Shown piece by piece: positions 6,921 through 26,194 of a stretch of 51,003 bases of DNA (position 1 is the stretch's first letter; every line of letters begins with the position of its first letter). A program made the position numbers and the translations under genes. A model generated the notes under the pieces. It ran no database searches. It was given only the letters and a program-made list of their open reading frames with translations, and had not been told where the DNA came from. The stretch is from NCBI GenBank assembly GCA_937981995.1, contig CALJNC010000079.1:1-51003 (forward strand), written 5' to 3'. This stretch comes from an uncultured Chitinophagaceae bacterium. GTDB taxonomy: Bacteria > Bacteroidota > Bacteroidia > Chitinophagales > Chitinophagaceae.

Positions 6921-7151
6921 ATGAATATGCAAAATATAAATATCAAACAAAGTGTAAAATTTGGACTAATTGGCTCAATAATTATTGGGGCGCTCTCATT
7001 AATAAATTTTCTAGAGACAGTGTATTATATGTTCGACTATGGCGGCTTTGGTTTTTTGAATTTCTTTAAGGTAGCTGCTAAATTAGGTGGCCATGTATTA
7101 ATTATTCTTTTTTTTCACAGTTTTAATTTAAAAGTAAATGGCACAAAATAA
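6921..7151 (+). CDS. Small two-TM membrane protein
   Basis: A 76-residue protein beginning directly after the upstream stop codon, with two hydrophobic segments (about 14-33 and 47-66) separated by a Tyr/Gly-rich loop (YYMFDYGGFGF). The last four codons overlap the start of the zinc-ribbon gene at 7138, which suggests translational coupling. No family recognised; called from compact packing, hydrophobic pattern and overlap. Confidence 0.55.
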   Translation: MNMQNINIKQSVKFGLIGSIIIGALSLINFLETVYYMFDYGGFGFLNFFKVAAKLGGHVLIILFFHSFNLKVNGTK

Positions 7152-7569
7152 AATAATATCAGTTCAGCTCTACGGAGGAGTAATAGGAATGCTCATGGGA
7201 TCACCCAAGATGTCTTTAGAGCGAAGCATCCTTAAGGCAAATAGAAATGGCTATGAGGTTGTACAGATAATAGAATCGAGCTCGGGGAACTTGGCCTTAA
7301 ATGTAATCCGTTTAATTATCCTGGTTTTTACAATTTTCTTATTTACCCTAGGAAATGGATATTATATAATCTTGCGAAAAACAGATGGCAAAAAGGTGAA
7401 TTCAGATAATTCAAATTCTGTTTTGTCAACGGGTGTTACTAAGGAGTTGCTTATTAGTCCAGAAGAGGATGCCAGTCTTGATTTTTTAGATGATAAAACC
7501 TGTAGTAGCTGTGGTTCTGAAGTGCTTAAAGATGCCAAATTCTGTGAAAATTGCGGTAAACCACTATAA
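7138..7569 (+). CDS. One-TM protein with C-terminal zinc ribbon
   Basis: A 143-residue protein: an N-terminal basic part (1-50), one transmembrane helix (about 52-79), a Ser/Asn-rich linker, and a C-terminal zinc ribbon with C122, C125, C136, C139 (CSSCG...FCENCG). The same ribbon type appears at the N-termini of the two proteins at 8332 and 9390, so three neighbouring genes carry it. The ribbon presumably lies in the cytoplasm, where such modules act as adaptor sites. The gene overlaps its upstream neighbour by 14 bases. Function is unknown; membership of the downstream cluster is inferred from the shared ribbon and strand. Confidence 0.7.
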   Translation: MAQNKIISVQLYGGVIGMLMGSPKMSLERSILKANRNGYEVVQIIESSSGNLALNVIRLIILVFTIFLFTLGNGYYIILRKTDGKKVNSDNSNSVLSTGVTKELLISPEEDASLDFLDDKTCSSCGSEVLKDAKFCENCGKPL

Positions 7570-7590
7570 CTAATTTCTAAAATTACACTT

Positions 7591-8319
7591 ATGATCAAAC
7601 CCCTTTCTGTATTAGTTGTTGGCTTATTTTTTTTGTTTTCATGTAATAACAATGAAGCCCAATTAGAAAAACTACAAAGTGAAAATGAAAAACTTCAAAA
7701 GAAGATAAAAAACCAAGAAAACGATCAGCTACTAACTAAGGAGACCGTTAATTCTCCAGCTTATGTACGTCAAATTTTTGAGCAAAATGGAGAGCATTTG
7801 GCTAGAGTGGATTTGGTTCAGTTTAAGAATGGAGGGGTGGCCAACGAAAATGAAAAACTTCGTTTGTTCAAAATTCAGAATGCTGAACAAAAAAACTTCT
7901 TAGAATCTACCAAAGGTAGCGTAGTTAATTTGTCCGTTACGAATGGTGTTATTCAGGCTGTAGCAAATTCTACCATTCAGAATCCCGCTCAAAAAAAATC
8001 TTGTAGATACACTAAGGAGAGTTCCAGTTCAGATTGCTACATCAAAAGGTACTACGAATGTGGTGGAGACTTCTATATTGATGTGGATTATATAGTCATG
8101 AAAGAAAATGAAGATGGTCGTGGGGGTTATGTAGTAAACAATAATCCAAAAATTAGAACCTTTAAAGTTCAAAGCCATGCAACAATTTCAGGGGTTAGTG
8201 AAGGTCCGATAGATGCCCAAAGTTTCATACGGAACGAAATGAATCATGAAGAAGTTATTTATGTTAAAGTAAGAAAAGGTGTTATAGTAAGGATGTCTTC
8301 ATGGCGTCATGTAAGTTAA
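7591..8319 (+). CDS. Lipoprotein with coiled coil and NNNPKIRT domain
   Basis: A 242-residue protein with a lipoprotein signal peptide ending FLFSC (lipid-anchored C18), then a heptad-like coiled coil (about 22-50, LEKLQSENEKLQKKIKNQE). The C-terminal 100 residues carry the domain shared with the protein at 3696-4088: CYIKRYYECGG..YIDVDYIVMK then VNNNPKIRT. It is therefore an envelope lipoprotein displaying this domain at the end of a coiled-coil stalk. It starts 21 bases after the zinc-ribbon gene and ends 12 bases before the next one. No enzymatic motif is visible. Confidence 0.75.
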   Translation: MIKPLSVLVVGLFFLFSCNNNEAQLEKLQSENEKLQKKIKNQENDQLLTKETVNSPAYVRQIFEQNGEHLARVDLVQFKNGGVANENEKLRLFKIQNAEQKNFLESTKGSVVNLSVTNGVIQAVANSTIQNPAQKKSCRYTKESSSSDCYIKRYYECGGDFYIDVDYIVMKENEDGRGGYVVNNNPKIRTFKVQSHATISGVSEGPIDAQSFIRNEMNHEEVIYVKVRKGVIVRMSSWRHVS

Positions 8320-8331
8320 AATTATTGAATT

Positions 8332-9378
8332 ATGTTTTGTAAAAATTGTGGTGAAAAACTAAGTGAGACAGCAAAATTTTGTAAAGGCTGTGGCGAGAAA
8401 ACAGTTCCTAAACCAAGTGCAAGCGAAGAGATAGGACATTCCCCACCTGTTTCTATGCCTACATCGGTGAACGAACAATCAAGTGCTATAGAGGATGATT
8501 CTATTCTATCTAGAGAAAACGTTGCTGATTATGTGCGGTATATTTCTAATGCAAAAGGCAAAAGTCTGAATGAAAATAAAATTAGGAAATGGGAAAAGTT
8601 GGATGATAATGAACTTTCAAAAGCACTGGAAAAATTATACGTTCATTTAGGAATCAGCCATGCGGATAGGGAAAAATATTTAAACGTTTTTAGAGATAAG
8701 CAACATGTTCAGGTGGAGAGCCCGAATGAAAAAATTGTAGAAGCGCCTGTGGCTCCAGTCAATTATCAGTCCAACCCTGTTCAGCCCGTGCCGCAAACCC
8801 AACAACCTATTTATGTTGCTCCACCGCAGGAAACCAAAGGGAGGAACACAAAATGGTATATCCTTGGTGGAGTTGCCTTGCTTTTAGGACTTGGGTTTCT
8901 ATTCAAAGATAAAATTGTTGGAACCAAATCGGAGAATACAGAGCAGGTATCTAACGATGGCCATGATGTAGAAAATTATGATGGTTCGAATGATTACCCG
9001 GAGGAGGTAACTGAGGAATATTCTGAACCTGCTCAAACGTGGACGGCGGATCAACAGATACGAAATGTTGTCAATGCGGAGGATAATAGAAACTTTGATT
9101 TATTTTGGAGTTATTTTTCGCCTAATGTACGTAGGTATTGGGATGTGCGCTATCCAAGTTACTCTAAGCTAAAGAAAATGCTTGAGTTGCAATGGGGGAA
9201 GAAAAGTTATTCAGCCAACTTTGTACAATCTATTGATTATGTAAGTCATAATACCTATAATTTACATACTCGTTTTGAGTATCAAATGAAAAAATCCGGT
9301 AAACAGAAATCTGTATATTCCACCGTACGTTATGTATTTGATGATGACGGCAAGGTGTTAGAAGTATATGGATTATAA
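8332..9378 (+). CDS. Zinc-ribbon, one-TM protein with NTF2-like C-terminal domain
   Basis: A 348-residue protein in four parts: an N-terminal zinc ribbon (C3, C6, C17, C20); a roughly 60-residue helical domain (about 61-122, RENVADYVRYISNAKGK... ELSKALEKLY) repeated almost residue for residue at the N-terminus of the SH3b protein at 20802; a Pro/Gln-rich linker and transmembrane helix (about 175-191); and an extracytoplasmic domain (about 235-348) with the strand-helix pattern of NTF2/SnoaL-like folds. Helix and C-terminal domain are closely related to the next gene, so the pair arose by duplication. Ribbon and helical domain should be cytoplasmic, the NTF2-like part periplasmic. Role unknown; a transmembrane adaptor is my inference. 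Confidence 0.75.
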   Translation: MFCKNCGEKLSETAKFCKGCGEKTVPKPSASEEIGHSPPVSMPTSVNEQSSAIEDDSILSRENVADYVRYISNAKGKSLNENKIRKWEKLDDNELSKALEKLYVHLGISHADREKYLNVFRDKQHVQVESPNEKIVEAPVAPVNYQSNPVQPVPQTQQPIYVAPPQETKGRNTKWYILGGVALLLGLGFLFKDKIVGTKSENTEQVSNDGHDVENYDGSNDYPEEVTEEYSEPAQTWTADQQIRNVVNAEDNRNFDLFWSYFSPNVRRYWDVRYPSYSKLKKMLELQWGKKSYSANFVQSIDYVSHNTYNLHTRFEYQMKKSGKQKSVYSTVRYVFDDDGKVLEVYGL

Positions 9379-9389
9379 TAGTATGTCCT

Positions 9390-10031
9390 ATGATAATATG
9401 TAGCAATTGTAATACAGAAATAACGGCCACAACAAAATTTTGTAAAAATTGTGGTGCCAAGATTGTGGTGCCCACTCCACAACCGCAGGCCACCCAGCAC
9501 GTTACACCTCCACCCATACATACGAGAGCAAAGAGTGATAATGTAAAATGGTATATTATTGGCGGTGTAGTTCTGTTGTTAGGTTTAGGTTTTTTATTTA
9601 AGGATAAAATACTTGCCTACGAGGAGTCAACGGTTGCATCTCAAACTACAACAGAAGTTCCGGAAGCTGTGCCAGCAGAAGCAGCACCGTCTTGGAGTGC
9701 TGAAGGGAATATTAGAGCGATGGCTAATGCTCAAGACAATAGGGATTTTGATCAATTGTGGGGATATTATTCACCCGATATGACGCGCTATTGGGACATG
9801 AACAATCCAACCTATGGTAAATTAAAGAAGCGATATACCTCTGTTTGGAATAAGTTAAGTTATTCTACTAATGAAATTACCTCTGTAGAACATGTTAGCG
9901 GTAATACCTACGATATGAATACTACGTTCACCTACCAAATGAAAAAATCAGGCAAAACTAAAACAGGGTACTCTACCGTGCGATACAAGTTTGATGATTA
10001 CGGAAGAGTGGTAGAAGTTTATGGGCTATAA
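9390..10031 (+). CDS. Zinc-ribbon, one-TM, NTF2-like protein (paralogue of preceding gene)
   Basis: A 213-residue shorter copy of the upstream protein: zinc ribbon (C4, C7, C18, C21), Pro-rich linker, TM helix (about 54-70, WYIIGGVVLLLGLGFLFKD, nearly identical to its neighbour's) and the same NTF2-like C-terminal domain ending VRYKFDDYGRVVEVYGL. It lacks the 60-residue helical domain. The start at 9390 is fixed by the ribbon, whose first cysteine is residue 4; another ATG seven bases upstream is out of frame and stops at once. The gene lies 11 bases after its paralogue. Confidence 0.75.
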   Translation: MIICSNCNTEITATTKFCKNCGAKIVVPTPQPQATQHVTPPPIHTRAKSDNVKWYIIGGVVLLLGLGFLFKDKILAYEESTVASQTTTEVPEAVPAEAAPSWSAEGNIRAMANAQDNRDFDQLWGYYSPDMTRYWDMNNPTYGKLKKRYTSVWNKLSYSTNEITSVEHVSGNTYDMNTTFTYQMKKSGKTKTGYSTVRYKFDDYGRVVEVYGL

Positions 10032-10071
10032 GAAAAAGAACAAATGGTTTAAAGGAATATACAATAAGGTT

Positions 10072-11271
10072 ATGATAAAAATAAAAAGACTATTGCCGCT
10101 TCTCATACTGAGCTTTATGGTATCATGTAACAATGATAACTCCAAATCTGTCACGACGGATACAGAACATGAAATAGAAGAAAGTGTTGCAAATGAAAAA
10201 GGTAAAATGCCAAGCTGGGATGGCACTTTTGCCTTAACTGATTTTTATTCTACTAATAGTAAGCTAGATCGGCTCGCGACATCTATTTATAATACCTTGG
10301 ATGAGGATACCCGAGCGGCGCAGCTGATTATGCCCGCTATGTCTAAAAACGATTTTGCACTGCCACCATCTCAAATAAAAAAACTATTTAAAAATAAAAA
10401 GATTGGGGGCGTATTATGTTTAAGAGGAACAACTAGTTTTTTTAAAAAACATCTTAAGGCCCTAAACAAGCTTGCAGAGCGCAATGACATACTGCCCATT
10501 ATGAGTAGCTGCGATGGAGAGCCCGCACTTATACATTATAAGCTAAAGGATCAGGGGAAAATGGTCCCAGCCAATGCGCAAAATACCATAGCCGATGTAA
10601 AAACGGAAGCAGCAAAAGTTAGAAGCCTTATGGAGCAAATAGGACTCAATATAAATTTTGCACCTTTAGCTGATAACGACAAGAATAAGGCGATTATTGG
10701 CAACAGGTCTTTTGGTTCATCATTGGGTGACATATCTCCTAAGGCAATTGCTTTTGTAAACACACATCAGCAAAATAATAAAGTTGCTGTACTTAAACAT
10801 TTTCCCGGACACGGAAGTGTGAAAGGCGATAGCCATAAAAAGCTTGTTGAAATACGAGGCAGAATGACGGAGGTGGCAACATTTAATGACATTATTAAAA
10901 AGTCTAAACCGCTAGGAGTTATGGTGGGGCATATAGCAGTGGTAGGAAATAAAAAGTACAATACCAATGATCAACCGGCATCCTTATCACGAAAAATCGT
11001 AACGGACCTTTTGAAGAATCAATTAAATTTTAAGGGTATTGTCTTTACAGACGCTATGAATATGGGCGGCGTTGCTAGTTTTAAAAATGCCTCTTATCGA
11101 TCCCTTCAGGCTGGTTCTGATGTTATAGTCATGCCCCTGCACCCTGAAAAATTACATGCACGCATTAAGAAAGAAATTCAAACCCAATCTGCAATGTCTA
11201 AGCAGTTAAAAGAATCTATTAAAAAAATTATAAAACTTAAGCTTTGTTTAGGTATCTTAAGCTCCGATTAA
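10072..11271 (+). CDS. Lipoprotein, glycoside hydrolase family 3 (NagZ-like), atypical
   Basis: With the start at 10072 (good AAGG upstream and a lipobox FMVSC, C19) this is a 399-residue lipoprotein; an in-frame ATG at 10021 would add a hydrophilic leader before the signal and overlap the previous gene. The GH3 barrel is clear: KHFPGHGSVKGDSHKKL has the Asp-x-His acid/base pair (D253, H255) and VFTDAMNMGGV holds the nucleophile Asp (D327). GH3 NagZ enzymes cleave beta-N-acetylglucosamine from wall fragments. The usual IDQEGGxVxRL loop is replaced by SSCDGEPALIHYK, so substrate or activity may differ. Its neighbours concern the cell wall, which suits a muropeptide substrate. The canonical paralogue is at 25012-26082. 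Confidence 0.85.
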   Translation: MIKIKRLLPLLILSFMVSCNNDNSKSVTTDTEHEIEESVANEKGKMPSWDGTFALTDFYSTNSKLDRLATSIYNTLDEDTRAAQLIMPAMSKNDFALPPSQIKKLFKNKKIGGVLCLRGTTSFFKKHLKALNKLAERNDILPIMSSCDGEPALIHYKLKDQGKMVPANAQNTIADVKTEAAKVRSLMEQIGLNINFAPLADNDKNKAIIGNRSFGSSLGDISPKAIAFVNTHQQNNKVAVLKHFPGHGSVKGDSHKKLVEIRGRMTEVATFNDIIKKSKPLGVMVGHIAVVGNKKYNTNDQPASLSRKIVTDLLKNQLNFKGIVFTDAMNMGGVASFKNASYRSLQAGSDVIVMPLHPEKLHARIKKEIQTQSAMSKQLKESIKKIIKLKLCLGILSSD

Positions 11272-11274
11272 TCA

Positions 11275-13758
11275 ATGGAAAATTTTGTTCTCGCCTTATT
11301 AGTAAATGACCGAAGAAAGGTCTTGTTACCATTATTGAAAGGAAGCCCTCGTCCTTCAGAGGAGTACATAATCAATTGTGGTTTAGCAGTGGCTCGTATA
11401 CCTATACTTACCATTGATAAAAGTAAATTAGTCCAAACTTTAGTTTGTAGTACCAAGGATGTTGCGTTGAAAGATTGCACCTTTAAGTGTGAAGTAAATA
11501 ATGGTCGCCTTAAAGTAAGCATTGACCCACCCAAAGGAGATATTCCTCAGCAAGAAAGTGCACCACTTCCTGAAAAAGAAACATCTTGGCGTGATGGAGC
11601 TGTAGCTAAGACTAAAAAGCAAAAAGTGGATGTTGTAAAGGACAATGGGGAATTGCCGCAGGAGTTACCTGCATTGTGTGGGATAAAGCTAGGTTACGAA
11701 GAGTCATCGGAGGCAATCATGATTTATGCAACACCCAGCGGTGATCAGCAGATAGCAGCAGAAAATAAATTTAATTTAGAAATTGCTTTCAATGCAGATT
11801 CCTATTGTAACTCTTTTACAATTGCTCTCACGGATAAAAACTCTTATGTGCATTTTGGTTTTGATTTTGGATCAGAAGCATCTCAGATAAATGAATTTAG
11901 GTATCTCAAAAATGTGAGCTCGAATAGCTTTGAAAGTAAAGAATCGGTTCCATCACTTTTTGATATTATTAAGGACAATAAAGAATTAAGCAACGAAAAG
12001 GATGATGCTTTTATTCAGTTTGAAAGAGGGTCCAATTTTTATAAGTCTATATTTTTTGCAAAAAAACAAATAGAATTGCGTAATGATGCCGATGGGAACG
12101 ATACGGCTATTCACGAAAGTGAAAAAAGTCTAAGTATCTTAAATAAAAGTATCGAAACGGATAGAACCTATTTTGAAGGATGGTATCAGTTACCTAACCT
12201 CAAAATTGCTCATAAGTATAGCGCTGACTTGCACCAATATAAATTTACGGTTGATAATAACGGTCAAAAACGGACCAAAGACATTAGCTCGCTCAATGAA
12301 ATATTGTACTCCAATATATTAAAGGAGTTGATCTATAACTATTTGATAGCAAGTATTGATAAACACAAAAAGAGTGACCTGCGCCTAACCTTGCTCATAC
12401 CTAATATGTATGAAACCTCTGATATTATAAAGATAAGACATCAAATAAAACAGAAAGTAGGGGAAATAAATAGCGAAAATTTACAAAATGCTATACGCTC
12501 CTTAGAAATTACAACCCTATCAGAAAGTGATGCTTCTTTTATGGGGTATTATAACAGAGATCATCATAATCAAACGGAGGCAAACAAGTACTATATAATA
12601 ATAGATTGTGGCAAGGGGACCACTGATTTTAGTGTGGTTCAGACGGATGAAAATGATTTGTATGATTACAAAACCTTGTATCGAAATGGGTTTGCCGGTG
12701 CGGGTAATTTAATAACCTATGCTTTTTTTGAGGCCTTGTTTTATTATATCTGCTCTATAAGCGAGAACCCGGACAATGCTAAAGAGTTTATAAAGAAGTC
12801 ATTAGATGGGAAGAGCTCGGCGGATATTAATCGTCTATTCGAACTGATTGAGCAAATGAAATTTAACTATGATCAAGATGCACCTCAAGCCATCATAGAA
12901 AAATTCTATGAGACGGCGGTTACGGGAGATTTTAATTTTAAGAATCTTTTTAATGGAGGCGAAAGTTGGGAAACAATATTCCTTTTATTAAAAAACTGTA
13001 GAAGCTGCTATGATTGGAATGGCTATATCTCTGAGACAGTAGATTTTATTAGTAAGTCTATAGCGGATAATCTGAACAATGTGGTTAAATCTCTTGGCCA
13101 AACGGTGCAGTGTGGTGGAGTACTACTAAGCGGTAGAGGTTTTATGTTTAAACCATTGCGCAAAAGTGTGATTGAGCATTTACAACAAATTGGCATTGAA
13201 GAAAACTTGGTCCGAGAGCCAGAGAGTGCCAAAGGATTGAAAGATGTGTGTTTGAAAGGAGTGTTCAGAAGAGGGTATAAATACAATCCTGATATTATGT
13301 GTATGCCAGTAAGGCAACAAAATAAGGCGCAGCCCGTTGGTGAAAATATTGAGATGCCCATAAAAAAGGAGCGTAAAATATTTAGACTATTTCATCAAAA
13401 ATTGGGTGAAATACTTGCGGAGGGGATGGATTTTGGTAGCGAACAAAATTCCATGAAAATGGATGCGACAGATATTAAAACCTTGAGATTTATTATTGGT
13501 AACTCTATTTATGAGCCTTCTAATTTTAACCTCAAAACGGGCGATCAGCTTGAGCTTATTTACTCGGGTGATGCCTTTGTACTGAAAGCGATTGACCACG
13601 GAGAACTAATAGATTTTTGCACCTTAGAAAAAAATTCAGAGGTGGAACATTCTGAGAGTAATCAGATTGTTGGGTCGCTATTTCCTGCCGTTCTATCTGA
13701 GAAGAGTATTAATTTTTTAAATCAAGATTATTCCTATGAAGACCTTATGCCGTTTTAA
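11275..13758 (+). CDS. Hsp70/actin-fold (ASKHA) ATPase
   Basis: An 827-residue cytoplasmic protein with no signal or TM helix. From about residue 190 it follows the actin/Hsp70 ATPase pattern: phosphate-1 loop HFGFDFGSEAS (D197), phosphate-2 loop IIIDCGKGTTDFSVV (D444, D451), a GFAGAGN segment near 472 like the Hsp70 GGxDFD strand, and an adenosine motif CGGVLLSGRG (about 613-622) in the C-terminal third. The first 185 residues are an unassigned beta-rich domain with a Lys/Pro linker; the last 130 are beta-like. It is not a DnaK orthologue, since the substrate-binding half and EEVD-like end are missing. It starts 3 bases after the GH3 gene and overlaps the next by 23 bases, so the products are probably made together. 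Confidence 0.8.
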   Translation: MENFVLALLVNDRRKVLLPLLKGSPRPSEEYIINCGLAVARIPILTIDKSKLVQTLVCSTKDVALKDCTFKCEVNNGRLKVSIDPPKGDIPQQESAPLPEKETSWRDGAVAKTKKQKVDVVKDNGELPQELPALCGIKLGYEESSEAIMIYATPSGDQQIAAENKFNLEIAFNADSYCNSFTIALTDKNSYVHFGFDFGSEASQINEFRYLKNVSSNSFESKESVPSLFDIIKDNKELSNEKDDAFIQFERGSNFYKSIFFAKKQIELRNDADGNDTAIHESEKSLSILNKSIETDRTYFEGWYQLPNLKIAHKYSADLHQYKFTVDNNGQKRTKDISSLNEILYSNILKELIYNYLIASIDKHKKSDLRLTLLIPNMYETSDIIKIRHQIKQKVGEINSENLQNAIRSLEITTLSESDASFMGYYNRDHHNQTEANKYYIIIDCGKGTTDFSVVQTDENDLYDYKTLYRNGFAGAGNLITYAFFEALFYYICSISENPDNAKEFIKKSLDGKSSADINRLFELIEQMKFNYDQDAPQAIIEKFYETAVTGDFNFKNLFNGGESWETIFLLLKNCRSCYDWNGYISETVDFISKSIADNLNNVVKSLGQTVQCGGVLLSGRGFMFKPLRKSVIEHLQQIGIEENLVREPESAKGLKDVCLKGVFRRGYKYNPDIMCMPVRQQNKAQPVGENIEMPIKKERKIFRLFHQKLGEILAEGMDFGSEQNSMKMDATDIKTLRFIIGNSIYEPSNFNLKTGDQLELIYSGDAFVLKAIDHGELIDFCTLEKNSEVEHSESNQIVGSLFPAVLSEKSINFLNQDYSYEDLMPF

Positions 13759-14926
13759 GATATTGCAGGCGAAGTACTTTTTTCTAATTGCTGCTTTTCT
13801 ATTTTGTACAACCGTATTATACGGCCAAACCCGATTTATTATATCTCATAACGAATCGGAGGCCGATGGTTTGATAACCAAAATTGAAAGAAGGGATAAT
13901 ACTGACCCCCTAAGGGTAGAAGTTGTAAGTAGTAAAGATACTTCTGGTTGTACTATAACATTTGGCGAGGCTGAAGAAGGTTATTTTCTAGATAATAAAA
14001 GTTTAGATGCCATCGAAGCCTACTTATTGACAGATGCCGAAGAGCGTTTGGCGATAAATGCGAATGAGCTCCATGAAGTTTTAGTACAAAGTGATCAGGT
14101 GTATTTCAAACTAGAAGATCCGAATGCTCAAGCAGCAGCAAATGTTTATAAACGTACGCAACAAGGTGGACCCAAAGAAAGGGACTCTAAATTATGGATT
14201 ATACTCGCTGGTATAGGTGGATTACTCATCGGCCTTATAGCATCTGCTTTATACAATTTTAAAAAGAAGGATACAATACAAAACGAACAACAAGATATGG
14301 TAAAAAAGGAGTTTCTTACGGAAGTATGTAAAGAATTAGGCATTGATACGAAACTTAGAAGAAAGGAGGAATACGAGACAATCTTATCTGCAATTCAGGC
14401 TAAGAATGAAGTTTTTGAATCTATCAAAAATGCAAAATTGAGACTGGAAACAGAAAAAGATGAGTTGAATAAAGAATTGAAAGGTGTGCAAGCCGCCTGG
14501 AAAGATGCAGGCGATCAGCTTGATGAGCATCAAAAGCAAGGAGCGCGTATTGACAACTTTATAAATTTTGTATCTCAAAATTATTTGGATGAGTTTAAAA
14601 ATGCGTTTTCTACAGGAGCCCCCATGCATCCTTTGCCTGAGAAGGATAAGTCAATTTTTACGCATACAATTTACGCATTAGCTTTTCATTTCATGAGTTT
14701 GATTAAGGTGAAAAAGCAACAAGCAAGTGAGTTTGATAAACAGAATATTGGCCAAGGAAATGGCGAATCCATAAATAGTAATACCTATAAGAATGTAAAT
14801 ATCTTGAATGAAAATAATATTCAAGATTACAATGGAGTAATACTATTTATAGCTCAGGAACTAAAGAAAAACGGTGTGTTAGAACTGAAAGATGTTAGTT
14901 TCCAAGGTCACTACTTCAAAGATTAA
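13736..14926 (+). CDS. Membrane-spanning coiled-coil protein linked to the ATPase
   Basis: A 396-residue protein with a signal peptide (cleavage near LYGQ), a periplasmic domain (about 32-150), one TM helix (about 158-177, LWIILAGIGGLLIGLIASALY), then a long charged cytoplasmic part with a coiled coil (about 190-265) and a C-terminal helical segment. This topology joins the cell exterior to the cytosol. The start codon lies inside the end of the ATPase gene (23-base overlap) and the stop is 4 bases before the giant SEDS-PBP gene. I infer that it connects the cytoplasmic ATPase to the wall synthase. No family recognised. Confidence 0.7.
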   Translation: MKTLCRFKILQAKYFFLIAAFLFCTTVLYGQTRFIISHNESEADGLITKIERRDNTDPLRVEVVSSKDTSGCTITFGEAEEGYFLDNKSLDAIEAYLLTDAEERLAINANELHEVLVQSDQVYFKLEDPNAQAAANVYKRTQQGGPKERDSKLWIILAGIGGLLIGLIASALYNFKKKDTIQNEQQDMVKKEFLTEVCKELGIDTKLRRKEEYETILSAIQAKNEVFESIKNAKLRLETEKDELNKELKGVQAAWKDAGDQLDEHQKQGARIDNFINFVSQNYLDEFKNAFSTGAPMHPLPEKDKSIFTHTIYALAFHFMSLIKVKKQQASEFDKQNIGQGNGESINSNTYKNVNILNENNIQDYNGVILFIAQELKKNGVLELKDVSFQGHYFKD

Positions 14927-14930
14927 TTAA

Positions 14931-17900
14931 ATGAAATCTTACGGACTCAAAATTGTAAGTCTTTTATTATTTGCGTTATTGCTAGTTGTGATATGGCAGT
15001 TTGGCGTGCGTATTGAGTTGTTCCTGCTAAGTGCCGTATTAGCTTGTATTTTTTATTTTGTAGGAGTTATCAATACGGAGCATTATGTTTTAAGCAACAA
15101 CTTTCCGAGCACGGACCCCGCCAAGAAAATGAATTTTTTGACAAACAAAGGTAAACTCTTTGCTGTAGTGTTATTTGGTTTACTTTTTGTGATAAGTTGT
15201 TTCTGGATTAGAACCGTGCAAAATCCTCGGGGTAAAACGGCATATTTTACCAATGCAGATCACTCGGCCTTAGCCAATACAGGTTTTACTATCAAGGATC
15301 AAGTCGTTTTGAAAGGGGTGAATGCGGAGAATCCAATTTTTAAAACGAAAAGGGGGCTTCTTAAACTTGAAGAAAAGGGACAAGCGCTCATTTGGAATAA
15401 TTTTTTCGAGCCAGTATTTAGCCTCAGCAAAAGTCAACGGAGCTATACGCCTGTCAATAATGTATACAAGCAACCCATTTCTAAAGGTTGGACTATAAAA
15501 GGAGATGGTACCGTATTAGAACTTATTGATATGAAAAAAAAGCCAAGTCACTTCTGGCTGAAAAGAAAAATTCTTAATCGGTGGGGCAGTAAATACTCCA
15601 TGACTTTCAGGTGTAGTAGTATAGATAGCTTAGGCAATTCGAAGGGTGCGGTGTATGATACGTTTAAGGTAGTGTCGACGATCAATGTAGGAATGCGCTT
15701 GGGTGATTTGCTTAAAAGAAATCCAGAGGGTGAGGAAATATCACAAGTAGCTTACGCATCACTAGAGGGGCTTTATCAATCTTATTTTCTGGCGAACGAA
15801 GAAAGCAATTTTTTAAGTTTTTTCCCTAATGCAGATTCCTGGGGTAGAGGATATCGGGTCTTTAATAATAATAATGTGGTGAGTCCTTCATTGAGTGGTA
15901 GGCACTCTTTATTAGAAAGTGGTTCTAAGTTTTATATAGGGTTTGCCCAAACGAAAGATAAAATGATACTGTCGCAAGCGGAGGAGGGGCTTACTTTGTC
16001 TTTTCAAACTCCCGAGCTGCATTCCCTTCGACCCGACGGTCAATTGCTCACAATAGGCAATACTTTTAATGGCTTCCTTATTAATAATTATCAAAATCTT
16101 GCGAAGTCTAATTTGGAGCAAGGCTTTTTATTTGATCGCGGTTTTGCTCCTTCTGCCAAAAATAAAATGTCGGCGAGAATATCGTATGAGCTTGGGGAAC
16201 CTTACAGTTCTTTGAACTTAAAAGTGCGGACTCGTAACAAAATTATTCAACCATCTTTAGATGGTAGTTTTATTGTTCCAAGCGAACGGGTCTCCTGGAA
16301 TTATCAGTTAGTTGATTTTTCTAAGAACCGGTATACTTTACAGTATCAATTTATATTTCTTGGTTTTATTTTTCTAGGCTTTGTACTCACCTTGATGTAT
16401 AACCCAGGAAACAATCAGGAGCGTATTGAGCCAATTGTGTACTATGTGATTTATACTTTCTTGGTCGTTCGACAAGTTATGCTTTGGAGGTTAACCACCT
16501 TCCCTCCAACAGAGAATATATCCCAGGCTAAGTTGGATAACTTATTATATTACGATACACATTTAATGGGTTACGATGTGTTTTTTCCGAATGGAATTTT
16601 GTTCACTATCCTTTTTATTTTAGGAATTAATATGTACCGTTGGTTGGGTAAAAGAGGAAAAGAGTTGAAGTTGATGCCAAGCGGTGTAAATAAAAAATTG
16701 TTCGTTTATACCGTGGTCCTTGTTTTATCTGGTGTCGTATTCACCATTTTCAAAAGTTCAATTCTGGGAAGGCTTTTTGCTATATTGATTCCTTTGGCGC
16801 TGTATTTTAAATTTAGCTATGCTATGATGCAGCATGAAAATGCTGAAATAAACTATGAGCAACTAAAGTCTCAAAATAATTTTATTAACTACCTGAGACT
16901 GTTCTTTACAAATTTGTTCGAGTCAAAACACTTTTTCTTATCACTAATGACCCTTGGCTTTCTGGCATATACTGATAAAGGGTTCTGCGTTTTATTTCTG
17001 CTCTTTTTATTTCTGCGAAAAATAATTATTTCTTTTGTAAGAAACCGAGAGATAAGAGATGGATCGATCCTAAAAACATTGGTTAGTCCCAGGCATTATT
17101 GGATTTACTCATTGGTATTTTTATTTGTGTACTTAATTTTTGTTGGTTTCAAACCAACATTTTACGTACTCCTTAATTACAAATTTGTTGTTCTTTCAAT
17201 TGTATTAGCATTAGGGCTATTCATTATTTGGCTAACTACTTTGCCAGTCTCCATTAAGCGAGCTGCTGCCATATGTGTTGGTATTGGTATTATCCTAATT
17301 ATAATACCATTTAGTAGAAGCTATATCGATGGTAAAATCAACAACAAAATTAAACATACCAAGTATCGTGCATCTATTCTGTTTGAACCCATCGAGAATC
17401 TTATTTCTGAAACGCCCTTTACATCTTTCGATTCTAAAAAAATTATTCAAACAGCGCAGAATCAATGGTTCATTAATTCTTATATATCTAAAAAAATAGA
17501 TTATGCAGCTCCGGTTAATTTGAGAGGTCATTTTAGCAAAGGTGTAAACTATATTACCCAAACGCGAGATTTGGTACTCCCTCGTTTTTTTATAGCGGAG
17601 TATGGTAGGTTGGCAATGTATTTAATTCTAGCATTATCCGTCATGCCCATTCTTATTTTGCTACTATCCTTTCCAGTTTTTAGTAGCTTGAACAAATTAG
17701 TGCCCAGCCACTATTTAGCGATCAGCGTAGGATTACTTTTTTGTACGATTGGATTTTTCGTTTGGATGACTTCTACAAATCGGTTTGTTTTTTTCGGACA
17801 GGATTTTCCATTTTTTAGTTTGACAAGTAAGATAGCCGTGCTCTTACCCTTATTCCTATTTACCACAATCCTCTTACTGCCTTTGCAACCCAAGGATGCC

Positions 17901-20363
17901 AATGAGTTACTTTTAAAAGCTAAACTAAAGCGTGGAGGATTGTTTGCACTAATACTATTAATCATAGTCGCTATTTCGGGTAGATCTAATGTTTTAAATG
18001 AGAGAAGCTTTAATATTAATTTGGCCAATACACACGATGCGATTGATGCTGGGTGTAACGAAATTGTACAGGCCATTCAATCAGAAATGAACTTGAAGAT
18101 TAACTTACCATCTAATCAGTCTGATATTAATATTACGGCAACTCAAAAGTTTAAAAAAAGTGTAGCGAAAGTATTTAGTCAATTAAAAGAGAATGAACAT
18201 TACAAGAAGTTATTAGAGTCATCTGATCCATACACCCGAAGCATTTTGGAATTGGTGGCTAATAATCCAGTAGCCTGTCTTAAAAATGATGCACCGGCAT
18301 TCATTCGTTATGTAAATGGAAATTTCGTTACCACCTTCAACCAAAACATTTATTTAGAACTACCCGCTTATAATGTCAGTAATCAATGGCGTGGTCAAAT
18401 TTACAGCAATACAGTTGTCAATGAATTGGCAAGTATACAGGTAGGGAATAAACAATTTCCTTTGGAGCAGCTTCCTGCACGAGTAGACTATGCAGGAGCA
18501 AATATTGCTGTATTGCCCAAGTCTTGGCTACCCGACGGAACGGCGGATCAAGTTGTCATTTCTACTTATAATCCAAGTCAGGGTAGTAAACTTAAATCAA
18601 AGGAAATTCAGCTCTTAGTTAAGGAAGAAAAGCGAAATAGAAATTTGAATATGAATAGTTTTGCTGAGAAGCTAAGCATAGAAGATCAAGCTACAATACT
18701 TGGGGAAAAGGATATGCTGCCCGTGTATTTTAATCGTACGGGGCAGAGCATGGTAACTAATAAGTGGGTCAATGGTAAGCGTAGGCTTATTTATCCGTTA
18801 GGCGATAAATTCTTTTGGCTTTATCACTATGCGAATGTTGCGAATCTCGGGAATAGTAAAATGGGGACATTGGACAGAAACTTAAGTTTAACGATAGATC
18901 CCGATCTACAGATTAAAGGAAAGCAATATTTGGCGAGTAAACTATCAAAGAAATATCAAAGACGAAAGGACTTTAAATTCTCTGTTATAGCGGCTGATGG
19001 CTTAGGCAATATTAGATTAATGACAGATTATGTGGCTAATCGAGAAAAAATTGACCCTAACAATCAGAAAGCACTTTATGAATTAAGTACAGAAAATTAT
19101 TTTGCTTCTAGCAGGAAGAACGAGCGTGACCAATGGGCTAATAGTAATTTGCTCAATATGGTTTATGGTCCTGGTTCCTCCATTAAGCCTATCGTATTGG
19201 GAATAGTTTCTGGTGAGGTTAATGCCGGTTGGGAAAGAATGAAATTATTAAGATCTAATCGTTTTAGGCCCAACAGAAAAGGGAAGAGTGCTGTATTCTC
19301 CTATGCAGGTTTACCCTTAAATAAAAAAGGCTTAGGCTGGCCAGAACAGCATGGAGGTGATAATGCCGATTGTGATGTAATCAACTTCATTTCTAAAAGT
19401 AATAACTTTTATCACTCCCTACTTGTGTTTTTGGGTTCTTATGCCCAAGATGATTTCAAGACGGAAAATGGAGCGTATTCATTGCGTAATTTGTACAGCT
19501 CGGATGAGAGCAAAGGAAACTACTATCCTAAAGTTACTTTTGATGGCACGCAGTATGGGTTTAAGAGTATCAGGTCAGGAGGTTGGCCCAGCTCTGCGAA
19601 TGACAATACATATTTTGGCAACGAACAATCCATCTTAAGTGCTGGCTTTGCTAAAAAATATAATCTCATTACCAAGGATATAGATAAAAATGACTATTCC
19701 ATAAAAACAAAAAAGCGTGTAAACTTTGCTGACACTGATATCTTCGATACGATGAAGCGATCCTCAGTTGCTAGCTACATTTGGTCATTCCCTGAGGAGT
19801 CGTATTTTTTACAAAAAGAGAGGCGCGCTAGTAATAAAGTAGACAATTTACTTTTTGGACTAAAAAATCCAACGGCAGGTGGAGCTCCCTATGAACTTTC
19901 GCCAGTAAAAATGGTGGAGTTATTTGGTAGAATGTTTACGCAAAAAAATTATGTTCCAACACTGAGGCAGTCAATTTCGGTTAGGTCGATACAATATGCT
20001 GATGCAAGTTGGAAGCTCAATGAATACGAAATTTTTCTTAAAAACTTCGTGTATAAAGGGATGGCAGATATTTTTAAAAGAGGCACCCTTCGAGGTTTAG
20101 GTGGCAAGTTTGGTGGAAGTAATACGTATAGGGGTTACCATATTTATGGTAAAACAGGCACAACAGGTCAAGGTGGAAAATATGATTCTAAACGTTTGGC
20201 AATTGTAATCTCTAAGGAAAACTTAGAAGTGTCTGGTCCAAGTGATAAAATATATGTGGTATATATTGCAGCGCAAGAGATAAATGATACGAGGTATGAC
20301 GTTTACAAAGATATTATCGATATAATAATGGACTCTCAATCGTTTAATACATATATGAAATGA
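14931..20363 (+). CDS. SEDS-like / class B PBP fusion protein, 1810 residues
   Basis: Domains in order: three TM helices (1-95); an extracytoplasmic beta-rich domain (about 95-470, unassigned); a polytopic region (471-1017) of roughly 12 helices; and a periplasmic penicillin-binding transpeptidase (about 1018-1810). The transpeptidase has all three motifs: SxxK (S1416-K1419 in GPGSSIKP), SxN (S1490-N-N) and KTG (K1741-T-G-T). The end of the polytopic region recalls FtsW/RodA: KYRASILFEP, YITQTRDLV..FFIAEYG (like the HTDFIF..EELG loop carrying the essential Asp; here D880), and VFFGQDFPFFSLTS (like the GLTLPFLSYGGSS helix). SEDS proteins polymerise lipid II and class B PBPs crosslink the product. 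The start is 4 bases after the coiled-coil gene; the stop overlaps the next ATG. Confidence 0.85.
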   Translation: MKSYGLKIVSLLLFALLLVVIWQFGVRIELFLLSAVLACIFYFVGVINTEHYVLSNNFPSTDPAKKMNFLTNKGKLFAVVLFGLLFVISCFWIRTVQNPRGKTAYFTNADHSALANTGFTIKDQVVLKGVNAENPIFKTKRGLLKLEEKGQALIWNNFFEPVFSLSKSQRSYTPVNNVYKQPISKGWTIKGDGTVLELIDMKKKPSHFWLKRKILNRWGSKYSMTFRCSSIDSLGNSKGAVYDTFKVVSTINVGMRLGDLLKRNPEGEEISQVAYASLEGLYQSYFLANEESNFLSFFPNADSWGRGYRVFNNNNVVSPSLSGRHSLLESGSKFYIGFAQTKDKMILSQAEEGLTLSFQTPELHSLRPDGQLLTIGNTFNGFLINNYQNLAKSNLEQGFLFDRGFAPSAKNKMSARISYELGEPYSSLNLKVRTRNKIIQPSLDGSFIVPSERVSWNYQLVDFSKNRYTLQYQFIFLGFIFLGFVLTLMYNPGNNQERIEPIVYYVIYTFLVVRQVMLWRLTTFPPTENISQAKLDNLLYYDTHLMGYDVFFPNGILFTILFILGINMYRWLGKRGKELKLMPSGVNKKLFVYTVVLVLSGVVFTIFKSSILGRLFAILIPLALYFKFSYAMMQHENAEINYEQLKSQNNFINYLRLFFTNLFESKHFFLSLMTLGFLAYTDKGFCVLFLLFLFLRKIIISFVRNREIRDGSILKTLVSPRHYWIYSLVFLFVYLIFVGFKPTFYVLLNYKFVVLSIVLALGLFIIWLTTLPVSIKRAAAICVGIGIILIIIPFSRSYIDGKINNKIKHTKYRASILFEPIENLISETPFTSFDSKKIIQTAQNQWFINSYISKKIDYAAPVNLRGHFSKGVNYITQTRDLVLPRFFIAEYGRLAMYLILALSVMPILILLLSFPVFSSLNKLVPSHYLAISVGLLFCTIGFFVWMTSTNRFVFFGQDFPFFSLTSKIAVLLPLFLFTTILLLPLQPKDANELLLKAKLKRGGLFALILLIIVAISGRSNVLNERSFNINLANTHDAIDAGCNEIVQAIQSEMNLKINLPSNQSDINITATQKFKKSVAKVFSQLKENEHYKKLLESSDPYTRSILELVANNPVACLKNDAPAFIRYVNGNFVTTFNQNIYLELPAYNVSNQWRGQIYSNTVVNELASIQVGNKQFPLEQLPARVDYAGANIAVLPKSWLPDGTADQVVISTYNPSQGSKLKSKEIQLLVKEEKRNRNLNMNSFAEKLSIEDQATILGEKDMLPVYFNRTGQSMVTNKWVNGKRRLIYPLGDKFFWLYHYANVANLGNSKMGTLDRNLSLTIDPDLQIKGKQYLASKLSKKYQRRKDFKFSVIAADGLGNIRLMTDYVANREKIDPNNQKALYELSTENYFASSRKNERDQWANSNLLNMVYGPGSSIKPIVLGIVSGEVNAGWERMKLLRSNRFRPNRKGKSAVFSYAGLPLNKKGLGWPEQHGGDNADCDVINFISKSNNFYHSLLVFLGSYAQDDFKTENGAYSLRNLYSSDESKGNYYPKVTFDGTQYGFKSIRSGGWPSSANDNTYFGNEQSILSAGFAKKYNLITKDIDKNDYSIKTKKRVNFADTDIFDTMKRSSVASYIWSFPEESYFLQKERRASNKVDNLLFGLKNPTAGGAPYELSPVKMVELFGRMFTQKNYVPTLRQSISVRSIQYADASWKLNEYEIFLKNFVYKGMADIFKRGTLRGLGGKFGGSNTYRGYHIYGKTGTTGQGGKYDSKRLAIVISKENLEVSGPSDKIYVVYIAAQEINDTRYDVYKDIIDIIMDSQSFNTYMK

Positions 20364-20797
20364 AGTTGAGACTTACGACCAATACAATTTGTGCCTTCTT
20401 GCTAATAATCTTTTTAGCAGTAGGATTATTAGTAACCCAAATGGGTTCTAGATCTAGTACTGATAAGGAACCCGGACTAGTCGCTCTCAACAAAAGTCAT
20501 ATTTCAATGATTCAAGTAGATTCTTTTAAAAACTTCTTGAATAAAGTATATGCGAATACTCTTTCAATTGGAGGCGAAAAGGACAAACTAAGCATTGAAA
20601 TTACTCAACAAGGTAAGCTTGCGAATGATTTTATTAATTCAAATGAACGATTGTTAGAAACGAATGAATTTTGTGATATTAAAATTGATCAAGAGCAAGG
20701 GATAATAAAAGCGAGTTTTCCTACCTTGAATATTAATGAAGAAACGTTTGTAAAAGTCCCAAACGATGTACTGATAGGAATAACTGCGAAAAAGTAA
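20360..20797 (+). CDS. Small one-TM protein of the cluster
   Basis: A 145-residue protein whose ATG overlaps the stop of the SEDS-PBP gene (ATGA), a sign of translational coupling. One N-terminal TM helix (about 8-27, TICAFLLIIFLAVGLLV) is followed by a short periplasmic domain with alternating strands and no cysteine or catalytic motif. Size and topology resemble a synthase accessory subunit, but no homology is visible to me. The next gene starts 4 bases downstream. Confidence 0.65.
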   Translation: MKLRLTTNTICAFLLIIFLAVGLLVTQMGSRSSTDKEPGLVALNKSHISMIQVDSFKNFLNKVYANTLSIGGEKDKLSIEITQQGKLANDFINSNERLLETNEFCDIKIDQEQGIIKASFPTLNINEETFVKVPNDVLIGITAKK

Positions 20798-20801
20798 AAC
20801 A

Positions 20802-21968
20802 ATGATAACAAAGGAGAATATTACGGAGTATATCAAGTATATCGCTCAAGCGAAAGGAAAAACATTTGATGACACTAAACTGGCTGGTTGGAAAAATCTC
20901 AACGATAGTGAATTAAGCAAAGCACTTGAAAAACTATACGCACATTTAGGAATTCCCACTCAAGATGTTCCTAAATATATTAACGGATTTATAGCCACAC
21001 AACAAAGCGTTTCCAAAACGAATGAACAATCAGGGACAGTTGCGGAACCAACTATTGCTTACGCAACACCGGTACAGGCCGCTCCAGTTTACCAACAAAC
21101 TGTTTACCAAACGCCAGCACCACAGAATCAGCGTAAATCCAAGGTTTGGAAGATGGTCCTTTTGATTGCAGCTTTGTTAGCTTGTTCATTTTTGGGGTAT
21201 ACCTACTATCAGTATAGCGATTATGGCTATGCGTATGCACTCACGGATAATATTGCAATCAGAGAGCAACCCAACAAAAGTTCAAAGGAGCTGGGAAGAA
21301 TGGACATGTTTGGAAAGTATATGACCAAGGATGGGCAAATACAGGATAGCTACTCGGCCTTTAAAATAATCGGTGATGACGAATATGATTACACAAAAAT
21401 TGCTTTTAGTGATTCTTATTGGTCTTGGATTACGGGTAATACTTCTGAGGGTTATGTACATACCAAGTATATCGGCCCGGATAAAAATGTTCATGATAAT
21501 TACAAAAGAATATTCGGTAATCTAAGTGATGATTACAATGAACTGGATAAGCTTCAATTCATCTATCGAAAGATTATTTACAATGGGATTGTAAAGTCCA
21601 AAACAATCAAGCAACTTGTGGTAAAAGAGCCTTGTTTCAAATCTCCCAAGCTTGATATTAAACTTCGACTCAGTATTGCACAAATTAAACAGAGAAAAAA
21701 TGGTTCTGTCGTTGGCTATACAGTAATTGTACAGCTATCAGATGATCAGTACTATACGATAAAAGGAGACTTGAATGGTGAGGTTGAAAAACTATACAAA
21801 ATTAAAATCATGGGAGAATATATGAAAACGCAAGGCAAGTTTAAATATTTTCCTGGTTCTGATTATGAAGACAAACATATACAACTCAAACCCTGTAACT
21901 CTAACGAAACCTACGATGCGTATGAGCCGTTCGCCGAATTCTATGGCTCAGAAATGTGTTACATGTAA
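20802..21968 (+). CDS. One-TM protein with N-terminal helical domain and extracytoplasmic SH3b domain
   Basis: A 388-residue protein. Residues 2-62 repeat the helical domain of the zinc-ribbon protein at 8332: YIKYIAQAKGK against YVRYISNAKGK, and ELSKALEKLYAHLGI against ELSKALEKLYVHLGI, about half of 61 aligned positions being identical by eye. Then a Gln/Pro/Val linker, a TM helix (about 114-135), and a bacterial SH3 domain (about 145-225: TDNIAIREQPNKSSKELGRM ... GYVHTKYIG). SH3b domains commonly bind peptidoglycan stems. The last 160 residues are beta-rich and unassigned. It closes the + strand cluster; the next gene is convergent with a 6-base gap. Confidence 0.75.
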   Translation: MITKENITEYIKYIAQAKGKTFDDTKLAGWKNLNDSELSKALEKLYAHLGIPTQDVPKYINGFIATQQSVSKTNEQSGTVAEPTIAYATPVQAAPVYQQTVYQTPAPQNQRKSKVWKMVLLIAALLACSFLGYTYYQYSDYGYAYALTDNIAIREQPNKSSKELGRMDMFGKYMTKDGQIQDSYSAFKIIGDDEYDYTKIAFSDSYWSWITGNTSEGYVHTKYIGPDKNVHDNYKRIFGNLSDDYNELDKLQFIYRKIIYNGIVKSKTIKQLVVKEPCFKSPKLDIKLRLSIAQIKQRKNGSVVGYTVIVQLSDDQYYTIKGDLNGEVEKLYKIKIMGEYMKTQGKFKYFPGSDYEDKHIQLKPCNSNETYDAYEPFAEFYGSEMCYM

Positions 21969-26082: not shown

Positions 26083-26088
26083 ACGCCT

Positions 26089-26096
26089 CAAAGATA
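26089..26096 (-). promoter_or_regulatory. Bacteroidota -7 promoter box (TATCTTTG)
   Basis: On the minus strand TATCTTTG matches TAnnTTTG exactly and ends 6 bases before the GH3 start codon at 26082. No convincing -33 TTTG was seen at the usual spacing, so this is a half-site match supported by position. Confidence 0.5.
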
Positions 26097-26194
26097 TTAA
26101 GGGTGAATGCATATTCTTATTTTTTAATTGTTATTTAGAAAGAAGAACGTGAAAAAGGTTTAGCCTCGAAATGTGAAATTCTTATAAAAAGAAA

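What the first reader, a model, noticed from the sequence alone, without database searches (positions are those of the whole stretch)
11275..13758. Hsp70-like ATPase without substrate-binding half, coupled to a wall synthase
Phosphate-1 (GFDFGSEAS), phosphate-2 (DCGKGTTD) and adenosine (CGGVLLSGRG) motifs define an ASKHA ATPase, but it carries its own 185-residue N-terminal domain and no DnaK-type C-terminal domain. MreB and FtsA are also of this fold and direct wall synthesis, so an analogous role here is a reasonable hypothesis.
Basis: partly seen in the sequence, partly recalled or inferred. Interest (0 to 1): 0.65.

Follow-up and report, generated by a model that had tools for sequence, protein, structure and literature searches.

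The report
Hsp70/actin-fold ATPase of wall-synthase operon
A bacterium carries a conserved gene set in which an ATP-using protein of the actin/Hsp70 fold sits, through a membrane linker, next to a giant protein that appears to combine both enzymes that build cell wall, which looks like an extra wall-building machine.

Summary
The ORF is real (11275-13758, 827 aa) and is an ASKHA ATPase: its predicted model matches Hsp70-type and MreB structures (VIA Z 19.4 and 17.6), and the nucleotide-site motifs are nearly invariant in 62 sequences. No Pfam, NCBIfam or PADLOC match reaches a cut-off. It starts 3 bases after a GH3 gene and overlaps a membrane-linker gene, which is followed 4 bases on by an 1810-aa gene. 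That giant ends in a class B penicillin-binding protein (VIA Z about 25; SxxK and SxN in 55 of 55, KTG in 54 of 55). Its middle resembles a divergent SEDS glycan polymerase (profile match, and an Asp where FtsW has its proposed catalytic Asp). The order ATPase-linker-synthase holds in 41 of 46 GTDB loci (3 of the 5 others end at a contig edge) and in 29 of 29 family genomes found with the ATPase profile, 14 of them new. The host also has MreB, FtsA-like, RodA/FtsW and PBP genes, so this is an extra set. Best reading: the soluble ATPase controls a self-contained SEDS-bPBP synthase through the linker. Coupling is well supported; control and filaments are inferred. Two loci pair a paralogue with other genes.

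The parts
11275..13758 (+). ASKHA ATPase, 827 aa, no predicted TM
11275..11832 (+). N-terminal beta-rich region, residues 1-186, fold not identified
   Evidence: model secondary structure
11845..13272 (+). ASKHA core, residues 191-666
   Evidence: VIA ranges against Hsp70 and MreB
11857..11886 (+). phosphate-1 motif GFDFGSEASQ (D197)
   Evidence: D197 in 60 of 60 covering sequences, (this motif was also a search pattern)
12520..12546 (+). connect-1 motif SESDASFMG (E417, aligned with the Glu of the DnaK stretch NEPTAAALAYG)
   Evidence: hhalign; 62 of 62, (also a search pattern)
12604..12627 (+). phosphate-2 motif DCGKGTTD, with Lys447 where DnaK has Gly
   Evidence: K447 in 60 of 62
13111..13140 (+). 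adenosine motif CGGVLLSGRG (G620-R621)
   Evidence: 62 of 62
13450..13638 (+). short C-terminal beta domain, residues 726-788
   Evidence: partial overlap with the Hsp70 SBD-beta range
13736..14926 (+). membrane linker, 396 aa: hydrophobic segments near residues 9 and 153, then a charged tail that reads like a coiled coil
   Evidence: a predicted TM in 52 of 53 linkers; coiled coil by reading only
14931..20363 (+). giant wall synthase, 1810 aa
16683..17972 (+). SEDS-like membrane section, residues 585-1014; D880 at 17568-17570
   Evidence: hhalign; D880 in 55 of 55
18375..20282 (+). class B PBP section, residues 1149-1784
19176..19187 (+). SxxK (S1416, K1419)
   Evidence: 55 of 55
19398..19406 (+). 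SxN (S1490, N1492)
   Evidence: 55 of 55
20151..20159 (+). KTG (1741-1743)
   Evidence: K 55 of 55, T and G 54 of 55
20360..20797 (+). small protein, 145 aa, with an N-terminal hydrophobic segment (by reading)
   Evidence: cluster c4, 15 loci
20802..21968 (+). 388-aa protein with a weak SH3-like match
   Evidence: cluster c3, 17 loci; SH3_3 E 0.0041, below cut-off
10021..11271 (+). GH3 (NagZ-like) lipoprotein (lipoprotein by reading); beside the ATPase in this window
   Evidence: PF00933 E 1.8e-42; no relative at E 1e-3 among the other loci searched

Best explanation
The ORF is the cytoplasmic ATPase of an extra, self-contained peptidoglycan-synthesis module. Shown here: (1) an ASKHA-fold ATPase with its nucleotide-site motifs kept; (2) a membrane linker gene directly after it; (3) a synthase that joins a class B PBP transpeptidase to a SEDS-like membrane section in one chain; (4) these genes keep order and strand across Bacteroidota. 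Inferred: the ATPase binds the cytoplasmic tail of the linker, and its ATP cycle (opening and closing of the cleft, with or without filaments) switches or positions the synthase, as FtsA and MreB act on FtsWI and RodA-PBP2 (recalled). Because SEDS-like part and PBP are one chain, their pairing is built in and the linker would mainly relay the cytoplasmic signal.
For: Fold: Foldseek Hsc70 E 3.6e-10, prob 1.00; VIA Hsp110 Sse1 Z 19.4, 351 aligned, 3.8 A, an integrative DnaK model Z 20.1, and MreB 1jcf Z 17.6, 299 aligned, 3.5 A. Motifs kept. Spacing in the window: 3-base gap to GH3, 23-base overlap with the linker, 4-base gap to the synthase, 4-base overlap after it. In 395 genomes spread over the window's phylum the only two with a full-length ATPase are the only two with a full-length synthase. 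ATPase and synthase distances correlate at 0.97 over 53 loci, best of 999 permutations 0.13. PBP part: VIA Z 23.9-25.6 in the 50 rows shown. SEDS part: profile match to 26 SEDS proteins, prob 91.6 with -glob 0 and 66.2 by default, against 2.0 for the reversed profile and at most 4.8 in 20 block shuffles in the default setting. ATPase without predicted TM in 53 of 53, linker with one in 52 of 53.
Against: No activity, interaction or localisation data. For the SEDS section: no PF01098 match for the window protein, nor among the 25 of 28 families shown for 27 members; no Gly-Gly in the stretch aligned with FtsW outer loop 5; no SEDS chain in the 50 rows shown for the model; Wzy_C, another membrane polymerase/ligase family, also scores (76.9 and 31.7 in the two settings). 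Of the synthase profile's 12 weak genome hits 5 were identified with Pfam: 2 SEDS, 1 transpeptidase, 2 unrelated transporters. L035 and L037 carry the ATPase family without a synthase. Linkers fall in separate sequence clusters in different clades.
Confidence: 0.57

Rival explanations
1. Stress or conflict response: the ATPase is a sensor or switch in a Ter/caspase-type envelope-defence system, and the synthase is one of its outputs (wall repair or fortification after attack).
For: Accessory genes in some clades: TerD twice and a CW_7 protein in L046, caspase with FGE-sulfatase (L028) or Sel1 repeats (L033), an AAA ATPase upstream in L048, transglutaminase-like proteins (L034, L036). Patchy distribution: 2 of 395 phylum and 30 of 394 family genomes. 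HSP70 components, some without the peptide-binding domain, occur in described conflict systems (PMC7159879, passages).
Against: These genes differ by clade while ATPase, linker position and synthase are constant. PADLOC finds nothing for 5 operon proteins.
Confidence: 0.22
2. Chaperone: the protein is an Hsp70-like chaperone that assembles or quality-controls the unusually large membrane synthase.
For: Hsp70-type chains lead the Foldseek list; the short C-terminal beta domain overlaps the SBD-beta range in ATP-state Hsp70 alignments; a paralogue sits beside a long repeat protein that reads like TPR (not scanned).
Against: No DnaJ or GrpE among the neighbours scanned with Pfam; no HSP70 match for the window protein at E up to 1.
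Confidence: 0.13
3. Generic membrane-signalling ATPase: the family serves several unrelated membrane outputs and the synthase is only the most common one.
For: L035 and L037 pair it with a repeat protein and DUF4407. L032 holds a second, distant relative of 1155 aa, and L040 a gene of the same cluster.
Against: 56 distinct loci pair it with the synthase (41, the window, 14 new) against 2; distances agree at 0.97.
Confidence: 0.08

Closest known systems
Rod complex (MreB, RodZ/MreC, RodA-PBP2)
   Same: Actin-fold ATPase in the cytoplasm, membrane linker, SEDS plus class B PBP
   Different: No MreC or MreD match among the window operon proteins scanned; SEDS-like part and PBP in one chain behind an extension of about 585 residues; the host has its own MreB and SEDS genes
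Divisome core (FtsA, FtsQLB/FtsN, FtsW-FtsI)
   Same: ASKHA ATPase beside SEDS-bPBP; of the ATPase profile's 7 weak genome hits three are FtsA by Pfam and one more reads like FtsA
   Different: No FtsZ-like match among the window operon proteins scanned; host has an FtsA-like gene (by reading) and two SEDS genes of its own
Hsp70 (DnaK, Hsc70)
   Same: Nucleotide-binding domain fold, connect-1 Glu, phosphate-2 and adenosine motifs
   Different: Own N-terminal domain, Lys in the phosphate-2 loop, no full substrate-binding domain and lid
Natural SEDS-PBP fusion ORFs
   Same: SEDS and PBP in one chain; PMC10449877 says such ORFs exist (passage), and L208 here holds one of 1355 aa that matches the SEDS profile (E 4.3e-29) and bears PBP motifs by reading
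   Different: The window's SEDS-like part is far more divergent, has an extra N-terminal module, and comes with the ATPase instead of the genes that read like kinases and PP2C in L208
HSP70-containing conflict systems (PMC7159879)
   Same: Hsp70-fold protein without its peptide-binding part in a signalling operon
   Different: The passages seen tell of GTPase-centred systems; 'transpeptidase' and 'ftsw' have 0 occurrences in the text

Membership tests
ASKHA superfamily | Duplicated RNase H-like ATPase fold | tested here: met
   Foldseek E 3.6e-10, prob 1.00; NBD-only chains have TM-score 0.54-0.62 by target length; VIA Z 17-20 against Hsp70 and MreB
ASKHA superfamily | Phosphate-1, connect-1, phosphate-2 and adenosine motifs | tested here: met
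   two of the motifs were also search patterns
ASKHA superfamily | ATP binding and hydrolysis | not testable with these tools
   needs biochemistry
MreB | Pfam MreB_Mbl match above cut-off | tested here: not met
   no match for the window protein at E up to 1; 9 of 49 aligned sequences match weakly, best E 0.0072
MreB | Filament formation on membrane | not testable with these tools
   needs biochemistry
FtsA | SHS2 (1C) domain inserted in lobe I | tested here: inconclusive
   no PF02491 match for the window protein; model coordinates could not be inspected
Hsp70 | HSP70 Pfam match | tested here: not met
   none for the window protein at E up to 1
Hsp70 | Substrate-binding domain (SBD-beta plus lid) | tested here: inconclusive
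   short beta domain 726-788 overlaps the SBD-beta range, rmsd about 5.3 A, Z not raised
Class B PBP | SxxK, SxN, KTG | tested here: met
   55, 55 and 54 of 55
Class B PBP | Transpeptidase fold with N-terminal pedestal | tested here: met
   VIA Z 23.9-25.6, about 350-370 residues at 3.1-3.9 A, ranges from model residue 563-570 to 1200; a range gives first and last residue only, so the pedestal part is less sure
Class B PBP | Pfam Transpeptidase above cut-off | tested here: not met
   18.4 bits against 22.1 for the window protein; 11 of 27 members match at E up to 1, best 2.3e-7
SEDS | Profile similarity to RodA/FtsW | tested here: met
   hhalign prob 91.6 (-glob 0) and 66.2 (default) against at most 4.8 in 20 block shuffles; highest of three families tried, but Wzy_C gives 76.9 and 31.7
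SEDS | Conserved Asp in outer loop 4 (E. coli FtsW D297) | tested here: met
   D880 aligns with the Asp of the host FtsW stretch SDFIY and is in 55 of 55; D297 as putative catalytic residue: PMC8765783 passages; that the two are the same Asp is my mapping
SEDS | Gly-Gly of outer loop 5 (E. coli FtsW G380-G381) | tested here: not met
   the stretch of the window protein aligned with SKGGSS of the host FtsW has no Gly-Gly
SEDS | Pfam PF01098 match | tested here: not met
   window protein matches PF00905 only; for 27 members 25 of 28 families are shown and PF01098 is not among them
SEDS | SEDS fold by structure comparison | tested here: inconclusive
   rows shown are all PBPs; the membrane part was barely tested
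Rod complex | MreC and MreD partners in the gene set | tested here: not met
   no such match among the window operon proteins at E up to 0.1

The most novel reading that the evidence does not exclude
A third kind of peptidoglycan machine besides the Rod complex and the divisome: an ASKHA ATPase of its own family drives, through a dedicated linker, a one-chain SEDS-bPBP synthase, independently of MreB and FtsZ/FtsA, perhaps switched on by envelope stress.
Probability: 0.4. Interest if true: 0.85.

Novelty: new variant of a known kind. Interest (0 to 1): 0.68.

Why it matters
Wall synthesis is understood mainly through two machines, each pairing an actin-fold ATPase with a separate SEDS and PBP (recalled). 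A compact natural version, with the two enzymes in one chain and a cytoplasmic ATPase of an unnamed family, would show which parts of that logic are essential, and would offer a three-protein system to test how an ASKHA ATPase cycle is passed across the membrane to a polymerase. It also puts a PBP-type enzyme in Bacteroidota that the Pfam model scores below its cut-off.

Tried and rejected
Family libraries: no match above a cut-off for the ATPase in Pfam, NCBIfam or PADLOC; sequence searches of solved structures gave nothing convincing (best E 0.055 and 0.11).

HHalign as a sub-family test did not decide: ATPase core against FtsA 75.4, DnaK 55.0, MreB 48.5, three controls 0.1 each (with -glob 0 gave DnaK 74.2, FtsA 0.1, MreB 0.0). 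In 20 block shuffles the maximum was 36.9 for FtsA, 9.1 for DnaK and 87.2 for MreB, so the MreB score is no better than a shuffle that keeps local motifs. The FtsA set held 3 sequences. I therefore rest the fold on structure and give no sub-family.

The SEDS score depends on the setting: 91.6 with -glob 0, 66.2 by default. The Wzy_C control is not clean (76.9 and 31.7), and Wzy_C and SEDS profiles match each other (54.2), so a related polymerase family is not excluded by sequence alone.

Weak genome hits: of the synthase profile's 12 only L076-L080 were scanned; L077 (symporter) and L078 (permease) are chance membrane matches. Of the ATPase profile's 7 L065, L066, L068, L070 and L071 were scanned (2 HSP70, 3 FtsA); L069 reads like FtsA and L067 was not identified. 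L209-L211, fetched as possible relatives, hold DnaK-type proteins that do not match the ATPase profile and were dropped. L208, with a SEDS-bPBP fusion, has no gene matching the ATPase profile in its 19.9 kb.

Rows dropped: L023, L029, L044 and L045 were left out of alignment A2; A2 still holds near-duplicate rows (L002-L007 come from the same genes as later loci, judged by sequence starts and lengths). 26 of the 41 synthase stretches, plus the window, went into A3. L044 (matched by the SEDS part only) and L045 were left out of the distance test. L044's ATPase fragment departs at the phosphate-2 motif and L045's synthase at KTG; I did not work out whether that is decay or misalignment. The GTDB scan used two short patterns, so loci that lack both would be missed. 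Promoter-like sites were not above shuffles (55 against 56.8) and terminator-like sites only slightly (14 against 10.1); I draw nothing from them.

Literature: searches listed no paper that I recognise as describing this gene set, judged from titles and abstract starts; only open-licence PMC text was searched. Passages were seen of PMC7159879, PMC8765783, PMC10449877 and PMC6207328.
Full report
What was checked. The ORF at 11275-13758 (+) is 827 aa with an ATG start. In the window the neighbours are tightly packed: GH3 ends at 11271, the ATPase runs from 11275 to 13758, the linker from 13736 to 14926, the synthase from 14931 to 20363, then 20360-20797 and 20802-21968.

The ATPase. No Pfam, NCBIfam or PADLOC match reaches a cut-off, and PDB sequence searches give nothing convincing. 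Forty-nine sequences, the window and some near-duplicates included, were aligned. Scanned singly against Pfam, 20 of 49 match diol dehydratase reactivase (DDR) and 9 of 49 match MreB_Mbl, all weakly, best E 0.0027 and 0.0072; both are families of the ASKHA kind by recalled knowledge. The AlphaFold2 model has mean pLDDT 77.9 and pTM 0.80. Foldseek ranks Hsc70, BiP and DnaK first, E 3.6e-10. VIA gives an integrative DnaK model Z 20.1 (352 residues, 3.6 A), the solved Hsp110 Sse1 Z 19.4 (351, 3.8 A) and MreB Z 17.6 (299, 3.5 A). In 62 distinct sequences the motif residues are nearly invariant; for the phosphate-1 and connect-1 motifs this is partly by selection, since they were search patterns. 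Lys447 in the phosphate-2 loop (GKGTTD, where DnaK has GGGTFD) is kept in 60 of 62 and marks this family. A profile search of 395 genomes gave 7 weak outside hits, of which 5 were scanned: three FtsA and two HSP70.

The ends of the ATPase. Residues 1-186 are beta-rich; no fold was identified. After the core comes a poorly predicted stretch (684-724) and a small beta domain (726-788), followed by a conserved Phe-Pro (F803 in 61 of 62, P804 in 62 of 62). Alignments to ATP-bound Hsp70 run into this domain, so the claim that nothing corresponds to the Hsp70 C-terminal half is open, not settled.

The synthase. The 1810-aa neighbour was aligned with 26 others and its residues 585-1784 with 28 others. 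The last part is a class B PBP: Foldseek E 1.1e-7, VIA Z 23.9-25.6 in the rows shown, S1416, K1419, S1490 and N1492 in 55 of 55 and KTG in 54 of 55. The Pfam model scores it below its cut-off and matches 11 of 27 members at E up to 1. The middle membrane part matches a profile of 26 SEDS proteins from relatives: 91.6 in one setting, 66.2 by default, against 2.0 reversed and at most 4.8 in 20 block shuffles. Sodium symporters give 0.8; Wzy_C gives 76.9 and 31.7 in the two settings. D880 falls on the Asp of the host FtsW stretch SDFIY; I take this to be E. coli FtsW D297, called putative catalytic in PMC8765783 (passages). D880 is in 55 of 55 sequences. In two loci the synthase is split into a gene of 590-595 aa and one of 1187-1188 aa that begins at the SEDS-like part, a natural boundary; these two are also the exceptions at Arg813 and at the GQDFP stretch. 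The Gly-Gly of FtsW outer loop 5 is missing. The SEDS assignment is likely but weaker than the PBP one.

Conservation of the set. Of 46 loci found in GTDB genomes with the ATPase, 41 have the synthase downstream on the same strand with one or two same-strand genes between (L019 and L044 also have one ORF on the other strand there). Of the other five, L023, L026 and L030 run into a contig end, and L035 and L037 have a 1364-aa repeat protein (TPR-like by reading) and a DUF4407 gene instead. A second set was found with the ATPase profile: 30 of 394 genomes of the window's family match at E 1e-10; the 29 other than the window's all have ATPase, linker and synthase in order; in L267 two ORFs stand at the linker's place. 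In 395 genomes spread over the phylum 2 have a full-length ATPase and the same 2 a full-length synthase. ATPase and synthase distances correlate at 0.97 over 53 loci, which shows joint inheritance, not contact. Of the 46 record titles one names Fibrobacter and one only 'uncultured bacterium'; the others name Bacteroidota.

The host already has the normal machines. Its genome holds one strong MreB, genes that read like FtsA and DnaK, two SEDS genes and five further transpeptidase genes over the cut-off. The module is an addition.

Accessory genes differ by clade: TerD twice and a CW_7 protein (L046), caspase with FGE-sulfatase (L028) or Sel1 (L033), an AAA ATPase (L048), transglutaminase-like proteins (L034, L036), and in the window zinc-ribbon proteins and a GH3 lipoprotein. 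Only some neighbours of some loci were scanned. This mix is what keeps the stress or conflict reading alive.

How it most likely works. Shown: predicted fold, motifs, no predicted TM in the ATPase (53 of 53), a predicted TM in the linker (52 of 53), active-site residues of the synthase, fixed gene order. Inferred: ATP-dependent closure of the ATPase cleft is passed by the linker to the SEDS-like part, which makes glycan that the attached PBP cross-links. Whether the ATPase forms filaments is unknown.

What is known. PMC10449877 (passages) says that single ORFs encoding a SEDS-PBP fusion exist; L208 here is one, beside genes that read like kinases and PP2C and without this ATPase. PMC7159879 (passages) describes HSP70 in GTPase-centred conflict systems; the words transpeptidase and ftsw have no occurrence there. 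Eight searches of open-licence papers listed no description of this gene set. I rate it a new variant of a known kind: it resembles the Rod and divisome cores in its parts, with a new ATPase family and an unusual one-chain synthase.

Noticed in passing
L208:7037-11104 (-): SEDS-bPBP fusion of 1355 aa with canonical SEDS motifs in a relative's genome, flanked by genes that read like kinases and a PP2C phosphatase; reminiscent of the actinobacterial rodA-pbpA-pknB-pstP cluster (recalled).
   Followed up: partly
L035:9494-17696 and L037:395-8697: Paralogue of the ATPase followed by a 1364-aa repeat protein (TPR-like by reading) and a 456-458 aa protein, DUF4407 in L037, with no wall synthase.
   Followed up: partly
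L032:3045-6512 and L040 (1145-aa ORF at 4338): Large gene upstream of the operon; in L032 it matches the ATPase profile but lacks Lys310 and Lys447; the L040 gene is in the same cluster.
   Followed up: partly
window 25015-26112 (-): A second GH3 glycosidase gene (PF00933 E 6.8e-75) in the same window as the operon's GH3 gene.
   Followed up: no
window 26242-29865 (-): 1208-aa protein with SprB repeats and a Por secretion tail.
   Followed up: no
window 7138-10031: Three zinc-ribbon genes among four consecutive genes; two of them (8332-9378, 9390-10031) belong to cluster c3, whose members follow the synthase in many other loci.
   Followed up: partly
L252:12202-13050 (-), L256:4789-5640, L259:4635-5465, L264:4212-5042, L265:469-1299: A conserved gene of about 280 aa, without Pfam match in the two scanned, directly precedes the ATPase in one branch of the family; ORFs of 273-348 aa stand at the same place in other loci of that branch.
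   Followed up: partly
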